Below, one piece after another: positions 10,512-12,620 of a stretch of DNA of 60,353 nucleotides. The stretch covers positions 1 through 60,353 of the forward strand of contig JANXXE010000049.1 of assembly GCA_025350815.1 (NCBI GenBank). The letters are read 5' to 3'. Position numbers and translations under genes: made by a program. The stretch comes from Myxococcales bacterium. Lineage in GTDB: Bacteria > Myxococcota_A > Polyangia > Fen-1088. Numbering within the stretch: the stretch's first letter is position 1; each line of letters begins with the position of its first letter. The notes beneath the pieces are model-generated. The model had not been told where the DNA came from and ran no database searches. It saw nothing but the letters and a program-made list of their open reading frames with translations.

Positions 10512-10886
10512 TCACGTCCACAGGGTCGGTACGTTGTACGGACGCAGTTGCTGGTCATGGGTGACCAGGATCAGATCTTCCACCATTGCCTGCGCAAGCA
10601 GCATCCGGTCGAACGGATCGCTGTGGTGAGCGGGCAGCGTGCCCAGCACGGTCGCGTGCGTGAATCGAATTGGCAATTCCGTGAACCCATTTGCGTCCAT
10701 CGCTTCGGCCAGTGGGCCCGGCAGCCGCAACTTGCCGAGCGCCGTCTTGATGGCGATCTCCCACGCTGAGACCGCGCTGACGAACACGACGCTGGCATCC
10801 GTGATGCCCTTTCGCGCAGCCGCGGTCAAGCGCCGACTGCCCCCCTGCCACCACAGCAGCGCGTGGGTATCCAACAGCAACTTCAT
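10512..10886 (-). CDS. PIN-domain ribonuclease toxin (VapC-like)
   Basis: A 124-residue PIN domain. Acidic residues of the Mg2+ site are visible: Asp6 (KLLLDTHALLWW), the central Glu of SAWEIAIK, Asp of HSDPFDRMLLAQA and the C-terminal VTHDQQL. Such toxins cleave tRNA or other RNAs. The start used is the ATG at 10886, which overlaps the antitoxin stop (ATGA); an N-terminal extension to 10955 would lie inside the antitoxin gene. Together with the upstream Phd-type gene it forms a two-gene type II toxin-antitoxin module. It faces the DUF1552 gene, 36 bases away. Confidence 0.88.
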   Translation of the reverse strand: MKLLLDTHALLWWQGGSRRLTAAARKGITDASVVFVSAVSAWEIAIKTALGKLRLPGPLAEAMDANGFTELPIRFTHATVLGTLPAHHSDPFDRMLLAQAMVEDLILVTHDQQLRPYNVPTLWT

Positions 10887-11131
10887 TCGCCGCCCCCGGA
10901 AAACCTCTTCAAAATCTCGTCGGGCAGGGGCGCGTCGAAATCCGAGGCCATCCACAAGCGACCCTTCCAGGCGCCCGGGTGGCGCGTGGTCTTCGGACCA
11001 GTCGGAAGAGGTCCAAGCCGCGCCCGCGGCTTTCCGGCTTTGGCGATGACAATTTCCTCGCCTGCCGCCGCGCGGTCCACCAATGCGGACAACTGCGTCT
11101 TGGCGCTGTAGATGTTGACCGGCTTGCCCAT
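10883..11131 (-). CDS. Phd/YefM-family antitoxin
   Basis: An 82-residue antitoxin. The N-terminus VNIYSAKTQLSALVDRAAAG followed by EEIVIAKAGKPRARL is the Phd/YefM DNA-binding fold; the C-terminal half (WKGRLWMASDFDAPLPDEIL) is the usual disordered toxin-wrapping segment. It should neutralise the PIN toxin encoded immediately downstream and repress their joint promoter. The two genes overlap by four bases (ATGA). Confidence 0.88.
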   Translation of the reverse strand: MGKPVNIYSAKTQLSALVDRAAAGEEIVIAKAGKPRARLGPLPTGPKTTRHPGAWKGRLWMASDFDAPLPDEILKRFSGGGE

Positions 11132-11295: not shown

Positions 11296-12519
11296 TCAGC
11301 GACCGGGGACCTGTGCGCCACCGAGCTCGGTGCCGACGCGGAGTCGATCGAGGTAGCTCCGGTACACGAAGGAGCGGTCGCGCTTCTTGCCGGTCGTCTC
11401 GACGAGAACGCCCGCGGCCACGAGCAGCTCGATCGCCCGCCCCGCAGTGGGCTTGGTCGTCTCCACCAGCTTCATCACCGATGCGACGGTCACGACTGGG
11501 TGGCGCGGGAGCAACTCGAAGAGACGCAGCGTAACGACCGACATCCCTTCGTGCGCGAGCACGCGCGCGCGGTCAGCGGCCACGAGTGCGAACAGCTGCC
11601 GAGCGGAGGCGACCGCTTCGGCGGCGATCGTCGCAACCCCGTCGAGGAAGAAGTCGAGCCAGCCCTCCCAGTCGCCATCGACCCGGACAGCGTTGAGCCA
11701 ACGGTAGTAATCCTCGCGATGCCGCTTGAAGAAGAGACTCAGGTAGAGGAGCGGCTTGGTCAGCAGCTTCCAGTGCTCGAGCAGCACCGTCACGAGCAGG
11801 CGCCCGATGCGGCCGTTGCCGTCGAGGTACGGGTGGATGGTCTCGAACTGCACGTGCAGGAGCCCCGCACGCAAGAGCGGCGGCAGCGCGGCGTCGGCGT
11901 GCAGGTGCTTCTCGAAGGCGCCGAGCACCTCGCCGAGCACGTGCGGAGGTGGCGGCACGTATGCGGCGTTGCCGGGTCGGCTTCCGCCGATCCAGTTCTG
12001 GCTGCGACGCACCTCGCCGGGCATCTTCTCGGCGCCGCGGACGCCGCGCATGAGTCGCTGATGCATCTCGTTCAGGAGGCGCATCGAGAGCGGCAGGCCC
12101 TTGGGGTCGGCGAGTTGGGCGCGCGCGTAGGCGAGCGCGTCGAGGTAGTTGCACACCTCCTCGACGTCGGCATTGGGCGCGGCGCTCTGCTCGGCGCCCT
12201 CCTGGGCCTCGAACGTGAGCAGGTCGACGAGGGTCGCCTGCGTTCCCTCGATCTGCGACGAGAGCACGGCCTCCTTGCGGACGAAGGCGTAGATGAACCA
12301 GTCGAGCGACGGGACCATCTCCCCAGCCAGCTCGAGGCGAACGAGCGCTTGCTCTGCCGCACGGAGGCGCTCGGCGAGGGCCGCGTCGACGACAACGGGC
12401 GGATCCGCGGGCGGCAGCGCGAGCGGGACGAAGGCCGCGACCTCCTCCCCACCCACGGTGGTCCGCTCGTATCGTCCGGTGGCTCGCTTGGGAATGTCGG
12501 CTCCGCTCGGAACGCCCAC
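11296..12519 (-). CDS. Fic family protein with N-terminal inhibitory helix and C-terminal winged-helix
   Basis: A 407-residue Fic enzyme, predicted to transfer AMP or another nucleotide moiety onto a target protein. The catalytic loop is HPYLDGNGRIGR with His229. An upstream SSQIEGTQ (about residues 89-96) matches the S/T-x-x-x-E-G/N inhibitory helix of class II Fic proteins, so activity is probably self-restrained. The C-terminal 100 residues look like a winged helix (VASVMKLVETTKPTAGRAIELL), so it may bind DNA and control its own promoter. GTG 12519 is the start; ribosome site weak. No separate antitoxin is seen. Three 31-bp-spaced repeats lie just upstream. Confidence 0.88.
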   Translation of the reverse strand: MGVPSGADIPKRATGRYERTTVGGEEVAAFVPLALPPADPPVVVDAALAERLRAAEQALVRLELAGEMVPSLDWFIYAFVRKEAVLSSQIEGTQATLVDLLTFEAQEGAEQSAAPNADVEEVCNYLDALAYARAQLADPKGLPLSMRLLNEMHQRLMRGVRGAEKMPGEVRRSQNWIGGSRPGNAAYVPPPPHVLGEVLGAFEKHLHADAALPPLLRAGLLHVQFETIHPYLDGNGRIGRLLVTVLLEHWKLLTKPLLYLSLFFKRHREDYYRWLNAVRVDGDWEGWLDFFLDGVATIAAEAVASARQLFALVAADRARVLAHEGMSVVTLRLFELLPRHPVVTVASVMKLVETTKPTAGRAIELLVAAGVLVETTGKKRDRSFVYRSYLDRLRVGTELGGAQVPGR

Positions 12520-12551
12520 TTGACCAGCCGCGCCGGTTGGGAAAGCCGACG

Positions 12552-12620
12552 TTACTAGGGCGTGGCGCTAGGAACAAATTCTTTACTAGAGCCCAACGCT
12601 AGTCAAGCCTGTGTTACTAG
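12552..12620. repeat. Three iterons (TTACTAG) at exactly 31-bp spacing upstream of the Fic gene
   Basis: TTACTAG occurs at 12552-12558, 12583-12589 and 12614-12620, each 31 bases apart. The first two are each followed after seven bases by CGCTAG (12566-12571 and 12597-12602). The array lies 33 to 101 bases upstream of the Fic start, where an operator would be expected. A regular three-turn spacing puts all copies on one face of the helix. What binds is unknown; the Fic protein's own winged helix is one candidate. Confidence 0.7.
12573..12609 (-). promoter_or_regulatory. Possible promoter of the Fic gene inside the iteron array
   Basis: On the minus strand TTGACT (revcomp at about 12601-12606) is followed after 17 bases by AAGAAT (about 12578-12583), a fair -35 and a weak -10 (4 of 6). 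The second iteron falls in the spacer, so a protein bound to the array would block transcription. Read by eye only. Confidence 0.35.

What the first reader, a model, noticed from the sequence alone, without database searches (positions are those of the whole stretch)
12519..12620. Fic gene preceded by a three-copy iteron array with exact 31-bp period
TTACTAG recurs at 12552, 12583 and 12614, exactly 31 bases apart, the first two each followed after seven bases by CGCTAG. The array sits directly upstream of a class II Fic protein with a C-terminal winged helix, and a candidate promoter falls within it. Most Fic genes are controlled by a separate antitoxin. Here the enzyme itself may bind the array and repress its own transcription, perhaps depending on its modification state. 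The iterons and spacing are seen; the autoregulation is inference.
Basis: partly seen in the sequence, partly recalled or inferred. Interest (0 to 1): 0.62.

Follow-up and report, generated by a model that had tools for sequence, protein, structure and literature searches.

The report
Self-repressing Fic toxin with operator array
A gene for a Fic enzyme, from a family known to defend bacteria against viruses, carries four evenly spaced palindromic DNA sites laid over its promoter, kept in relatives across several bacterial phyla, which the enzyme's own DNA-binding tail most likely grips to keep its gene switched down.

Summary
The three TTACTAG copies exactly 31 bp apart are real and non-random, but the unit was misread. 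Each is one arm of a 22-bp palindrome, consensus CTAGKMAMGNNNNCKTKMCTAG. The window has four such units (12506-12527, 12537-12558, 12568-12589, 12599-12620; 31-bp period) between a sigma70-like promoter and the Fic start. Of 98 non-identical Fic orthologues (57-100% identity, several phyla), 91 carry at least one unit; 177 of 178 neighbouring pairs lie 30-32 bp apart. Shuffles give ~2.5 sites and never the 31-bp spacing. Arms and promoter boxes are conserved while spacers are randomised, and flanking genes are unrelated from locus to locus, so the array belongs to Fic. The -35 (TTGACT) lies in unit 1 and the -10 in unit 2, as expected for autorepression. One clade swapped the palindrome to AAGCGATCGCTT, keeping 31 bp, together with an otherwise invariant recognition-helix residue (T358 to A/G). 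Two truncated relatives keeping only the winged helix still have the array. Autorepression by a class II Fic with a C-terminal HTH is already proven for Yersinia CccR, so this is a new operator architecture of a known kind, in a SoFic-type protein. Binding is inferred; dependence on modification state is untested.

The parts
12599..12620 (-). Operator 1, CTAGTAACACAGGCTTGACTAG (Fic sense); carries the -35 box in its right arm
   Evidence: PWM score 23.0, register shared with orthologues
12568..12589 (-). Operator 2, CTAGTAAAGAATTTGTTCCTAG; carries the -10 box
   Evidence: PWM score 28.4
12537..12558 (-). Operator 3, CTAGTAACGTCGGCTTTCCCAA
   Evidence: PWM score 23.6
12506..12527 (-).
   Evidence: PWM score 17.8
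12601..12606 (-). -35 box TTGACT
   Evidence: TTGAC in an operator right arm in 66 of 90 arrays, nearly always the first unit
12578..12583 (-). -10 box AAGAAT, 17-bp spacer
   Evidence: hexamer at 17 bp: A1 66/66, A2 64/66, T6 58/66; T6 lies in the otherwise variable palindrome centre
12501..12504 (-). Shine-Dalgarno GGAG
   Evidence: read from sequence; spacing fits codon 9, not the GTG at 12519
12493..12495 (-). Probable start codon of Fic (ATT here, ATG in most orthologues)
11296..12519 (-). Fic gene as listed (407 aa from GTG; about 399 aa from codon 9)
   Evidence: Pfam Fic_N and Fic; PADLOC SoFic 366 bits
12244..12261 (-). Class II inhibitory helix motif SSQIEG (residues 87-92)
11800..11835 (-). 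Catalytic Fic motif HPYLDGNGRIGR (residues 229-240)
11323..11544 (-). C-terminal winged helix (residues 326-399), the likely operator-binding domain
   Evidence: AlphaFold2 model, pLDDT about 86-96 over most of the domain, weaker in the wing (76-83) and past residue 390
11416..11454 (-). Predicted recognition helix (residues 356-368), contains T358

Best explanation
The 12506-12620 region is an operator array for autorepression by the downstream SoFic-type class II Fic protein. Shown by sequence: four 22-bp palindromes at 31-bp period (about three helical turns, so all on one DNA face), with a sigma70-like promoter inside (-35 in unit 1, -10 in unit 2) and units 3 and 4 filling the 5' leader up to the ribosome-binding site; the layout is conserved with the Fic gene and with no other gene. 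Inferred: Fic dimers bind the palindromes through the C-terminal winged helix, side by side and probably cooperatively, exclude RNA polymerase at units 1 and 2 and may block elongation at 3 and 4, so that Fic level is held low by negative feedback. The protein would then combine AMPylating toxin, its own antitoxin-like inhibitory helix and its own repressor in one chain.
For: Conservation: 269 sites in 98 orthologues, 91 loci with at least one; spacing 31 bp 163 times, 30 and 32 bp 7 times each, other once; shuffles mean 2.5 sites and 0 at 31 bp; CDS control 0, far-upstream control 1. Selection: mean pairwise column identity 0.73-0.79 in arms, 0.32 in spacers. Promoter embedded in units 1 and 2. 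Linkage: neighbours fall into 80 groups among 81 loci upstream and 83 among 85 downstream, so Fic is the only constant gene. Genome-wide: a tandem-unit pattern hits 27 of 290 class genomes, 24 of them at a Fic gene, a Fic relic or a Fic winged-helix-only ORF. Winged-helix-only remnants keep the array: L154 and L185. A clade switched to AAGCGATCGCTT at the same 31 bp, with T358 (86/86) becoming A/G (8/8) in the recognition helix. Distant Fic relatives have their own inverted repeats just upstream: 17 of 36 at p<=0.05 versus 1 of 32 CDS controls. Precedent: CccR.
Against: No binding or expression data. The operator switch is a single event on one clade, and three well-covered other residues (103, 133, 248) also separate the groups perfectly, so it is suggestive only. 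Three class genomes and one Gluconobacter genome have a similar tandem away from any Fic gene. L185 looks frame-damaged and other Fic fragments lack the array. CccR uses half-sites 26 bp apart, a different geometry. The PWM was fitted on the sequences it counts, although the controls use the same PWM.
Confidence: 0.85

Rival explanations
1. A separate, unlinked transcription factor binds the palindromes and controls the Fic gene (for example a stress or phage-sensing regulator).
For: Binding by Fic is not shown. Near-identical tandem units stand upstream of AbiEi-like genes in L168 and L178, and other Fic-free tandems exist.
Against: In the window's own genome CTAGTAAN9-13CTAG occurs only at Fic; with one mismatch the looser single-unit pattern finds few other places, no more than its reversed control. 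Array and Fic travel together across phyla with unrelated neighbours. AbiEi-like homologues lack the array and have their own repeats. Operator change coincides with recognition-helix change.
Confidence: 0.1
2. The array mainly recruits Fic to DNA to activate its AMPylation rather than to repress transcription, as DNA of random sequence stimulates Coxiella CbFic2.
For: CbFic2 activity rises over 22-fold with 20-bp DNA (PMC10628234). Several sites per locus would give local clustering. Not exclusive with autorepression.
Against: Sites overlap the -35 and -10 boxes with promoter bases conserved inside them, which recruitment alone would not require; CbFic2 stimulation used random DNA.
Confidence: 0.15
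3. Replication or partition iterons, or a mobile-element end.
For: Regular spacing and AT-richer repeats in GC-rich DNA.
Against: Palindromic units at a nearly fixed distance from the Fic start in orthologues with unrelated surroundings; no other match to CTAGTAAN9-13CTAG in the genome; no replication gene among the ORFs listed next to it.
Confidence: 0.01
4. Operator of the divergent molybdopterin oxidoreductase gene (about 13038 onward) or another neighbour.
For: The array lies between the two genes in this window.
Against: The neighbour differs at nearly every orthologous locus; the array's distance is kept relative to Fic and its promoter points to Fic.
Confidence: 0.01

Closest known systems
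CccR of Yersinia pseudotuberculosis (class II Fic with C-terminal HTH; PMC9755527)
   Same: Class II inhibitory helix, Fic domain, C-terminal HTH; binds inverted repeats near -35 and -10 of its own promoter and represses it as a dimer
   Different: CccR site is one pair AGATAATCAT-N26-ATGATAATCT; here a tandem array of 22-bp palindromes at 31-bp period with other sequence. CccR is a type VI secreted effector; nothing of that kind was tested here
SoFic / EcSofic anti-phage Fic family (3EQX, 3ZCN; PADLOC SoFic; PMC12249575)
   Same: Same domain order and fold; PADLOC SoFic model matches over nearly the whole protein with 366 bits
   Different: Far below the NCBIfam SoFic equivalog cut-off (152 vs 550 bits); the EcSofic antitoxin gene AS1 was not searched for, and downstream neighbours are not conserved; autorepression of SoFic was not found in the papers searched
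Mycobacterium marinum Fic protein 7CB8
   Same: Best solved sequence and fold match
   Different: 28-29% identity; regulation not looked up here
CbFic2 of Coxiella burnetii (8CIL; PMC10628234)
   Same: Class II Fic with C-terminal winged helix that binds DNA
   Different: Binding tested on random DNA; specific operator not reported; low similarity
AbiEi of the AbiE type IV toxin-antitoxin system (PMC3985639)
   Same: Winged-helix autorepressor of a toxin promoter with inverted repeats over the promoter
   Different: AbiEi is a separate antitoxin protein of another family; different repeats

Membership tests
Class II Fic proteins | Fic catalytic motif HxFx(D/E)GNGRxxR | tested here: met
   HPYLDGNGRIGR with F to Y at the third position; Pfam Fic 61 bits over cut-off 24
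Class II Fic proteins | Inhibitory helix (S/T)xxxE(G/N) N-terminal to the Fic domain in the same chain | tested here: met
   SSQIEG at 87-92, conserved in 20 aligned orthologues
SoFic anti-phage family | Near full-length match to the PADLOC SoFic profile | tested here: met
   E 5e-110, 366 bits, residues 26-393, profile 5-358 of 361
SoFic anti-phage family | NCBIfam NF046030 equivalog score | tested here: not met
   152 vs cut-off 550; so a relative, not an equivalog
SoFic anti-phage family | Protection against phage | not testable with these tools
   needs plaque assays
Autorepressing Fic-HTH proteins (CccR type) | C-terminal HTH domain | tested here: met
   winged helix in AlphaFold2 model; helices 328-336, 345-352, 356-368; whole fold matches SoFic
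Autorepressing Fic-HTH proteins (CccR type) | Palindromic sites over the own promoter | tested here: met
Autorepressing Fic-HTH proteins (CccR type) | Site geometry as in CccR (10-bp arms, 26-bp gap) | tested here: not met
   here 9-bp arms, 4-bp centre, 31-bp tandem period
Autorepressing Fic-HTH proteins (CccR type) | Direct binding and repression | not testable with these tools
   EMSA, footprint and reporter needed
Iterons | Head-to-tail repeats in a replication origin | tested here: not met
   units are inverted repeats in a promoter

The most novel reading that the evidence does not exclude
Fic dimers assemble side by side along the same-face 31-bp array, and this DNA-bound form is both the repressor and the stored toxin: a trigger (for example phage infection or a change in inhibitory-helix or AMPylation state) would release Fic from DNA, lifting repression and freeing the enzyme at once, in a single polypeptide without a partner.
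Probability: 0.15. Interest if true: 0.8.

Novelty: new variant of a known kind. Interest (0 to 1): 0.55.

Why it matters
PMC9755527 states that almost nothing is known of the functions and activity control of class II Fic proteins, about 80% of the family. A conserved, easily recognised operator code across several phyla, plus branch-specific repeats upstream of distant relatives, suggests that autorepression through the C-terminal winged helix is general for these single-gene toxins rather than peculiar to CccR. It gives precise DNA targets, a natural operator-switch clade and a natural repressor-only remnant, so the idea can be tested directly.

Tried and rejected
Iteron or replication origin: rejected, units are palindromes over a promoter. 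Operator of a neighbouring gene: rejected, neighbours are unrelated across loci. Operator shared with AbiEi-like antitoxins (arrays near such genes in L168 and L178): homologues of both proteins lack it and have their own repeats, so those two arrays look like remnants, unproven. A family-wide search from an Alphaproteobacterial locus was not accepted, replaced by 18 named genomes. Phage records gave only distant Fic hits. L190, L187 and L193 are Fic fragments without an adjoining array. Dimer-on-DNA geometry could not be modelled (monomer prediction only). T358 as sole specificity residue: not established, one clade-wide event with other co-segregating positions.

Full report
Observation. The Fic gene runs on the minus strand (11296-12519), so the array is upstream of it. 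Read in the Fic direction the repeats are CTAGTAA and CTAGCG alternating, which are the outer ends of inverted repeats.

What the unit is. I fetched orthologues from one scan of bacterial genomes (80 loci) and from class genomes. A palindrome-symmetric matrix over the 250 bp upstream of 98 non-identical orthologues (57-100% identity) converged on a 22-bp inverted repeat, CTAG-(T/G)(A/C)A(A/C)G-NNNN-C(G/T)T(T/G)(A/C)-CTAG. 269 sites were found; 91 of 98 loci have at least one, most have 2-4. Of 178 neighbouring pairs 163 are exactly 31 bp apart, 7 are 30, 7 are 32 and one is an outlier. With the same matrix, dinucleotide shuffles gave 2.5 sites on average and no 31-bp pair, the coding sequence gave 0 and a far-upstream region gave 1. 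In this window the chain has four members: 12599-12620, 12568-12589, 12537-12558 and 12506-12527.

Selection and promoter. In the 66 arrays with a recognisable -35, mean pairwise identity is 0.73-0.79 in the arms, 0.40 in the palindrome centres and 0.32 in the spacers. TTGAC(T) sits in an operator right arm in 66 of 90 arrays, in the first unit in 61 of them. At the 17-bp spacing the hexamer is A(66/66) A(64/66) G.. T(58/66); the final T falls in the palindrome centre, which is otherwise variable, so it is best explained as the -10 T. In this window the promoter is TTGACT 12606-12601, 17 bp, AAGAAT 12583-12578, with transcription expected to start inside unit 2. Units 3 and 4 fill the leader up to the GGAG ribosome-binding site.

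Ownership. The largest ORF upstream is unrelated between loci (81 loci, 80 groups) and so is the largest one downstream (85 loci, 83 groups): Fic is the only gene that stays with the array. In the own genome CTAGTAAN9-13CTAG is found only here. A tandem-unit pattern hits 27 of 290 genomes of the class; the reversed control hits 2. Comparing places and reading the exceptions, 24 of the 27 are at a Fic gene, a decayed Fic gene (L165) or, in L154, a 106-aa ORF that is only the Fic-type winged helix. The other three (L168, L176, L178) are not at Fic. Homologues of the AbiEi-like proteins next to L168 and L178 do not carry the array and have repeats of their own, so those arrays are probably leftovers; this is not proven. 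In a search of 18 genomes reached through the fetched loci, most of them Alphaproteobacteria, one further Fic-free tandem turned up in Gluconobacter.

Who binds. (a) The protein has a C-terminal winged helix (AlphaFold2; helices 328-336, 345-352, 356-368, wing about 373-385) and its fold matches M. marinum 7CB8 and SoFic. (b) A clade of seven full-length relatives plus one relic has a different palindrome, AAGCGATCGCTT, again at 31 bp. The clade is nested among users of the main operator, so the sequence was replaced while the spacing stayed. T358, third residue of the predicted recognition helix, is T in 86/86 main-operator proteins and A or G in 8/8 of the switched set. Positions 103, 133 and 248, outside the winged helix, separate the groups just as well, and the switch is one event, so this is supporting, not decisive. 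(c) L154 keeps array and winged helix after loss of the Fic domain; L185 is a similar remnant with a probable frame problem. (d) Of 36 more distant Fic relatives, 17 have a significant inverted repeat in the 130 bp upstream, with branch-specific sequence, versus 1 of 32 coding controls. Each Fic branch thus seems to have its own operator.

Mechanism. Shown: palindromes, period, promoter overlap, linkage to Fic. From established knowledge: 31 bp is close to three helical turns, so all units face one side of the DNA; winged-helix dimers bind palindromes; CccR, a class II Fic with a C-terminal HTH, binds inverted repeats by its -35 and -10 boxes and represses itself (PMC9755527). Inferred: Fic does the same here, probably cooperatively on four sites. 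Not known: whether one dimer takes one palindrome or bridges neighbours, and whether AMPylation or the inhibitory helix changes DNA binding. CbFic2 shows that DNA can stimulate a Fic enzyme (PMC10628234), so the array may also affect activity.

Membership. Class II Fic: met. SoFic family: met by the PADLOC profile, not met as an NCBIfam equivalog. CccR-type autorepressor: domain and site layout met, exact geometry not met, binding untested. It works like CccR; it is a new operator variant of that kind.

Caveats. Many loci are metagenome-assembled, and their taxon labels were not checked. Orthologues are related, so counts are not independent events; randomised spacers and unrelated neighbours argue against simple recent common descent of the whole region. 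The probable start codon in this window is ATT where most orthologues have ATG, so the gene here may be weakly translated, use another start, or hold a sequencing error.

Noticed in passing
window 12493-12495: Fic start position is ATT here, with GGAG in front, where most orthologues have ATG; the listed GTG (12519) lies inside operator 4 and has no ribosome-binding site. Rare start codon, decay or assembly error.
   Followed up: partly
window 10512-11131, minus strand: A PIN-domain toxin and Phd/YefM-like antitoxin pair (VapBC-like) lies directly downstream of Fic in the same direction.
   Followed up: no
L154 1467-1879: Array followed by a 106-aa ORF that is only the Fic-type winged helix: a possible free-standing repressor of incoming Fic genes.
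   Followed up: partly
L168 1498-1550; L178 1498-1550: Fic-type tandem operators without Fic, upstream of AbiEi-like genes that have their own repeats nearer the start.
   Followed up: partly
L200 about 1501-1547: In a Gluconobacter genome a similar tandem lies just upstream of a 126-aa membrane-protein ORF, with no Fic gene.
   Followed up: no
L134-L136, L121, L123, L140-L143, L195-L198 upstream regions: Distant Fic relatives, including plasmid-borne ones of Citrobacter, Rhizobium and Cupriavidus, have branch-specific inverted repeats right upstream.
   Followed up: partly
L165, L181, L187, L190, L193: Decayed Fic genes and fragments are common in the class, some still with the operator array.
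   Followed up: partly
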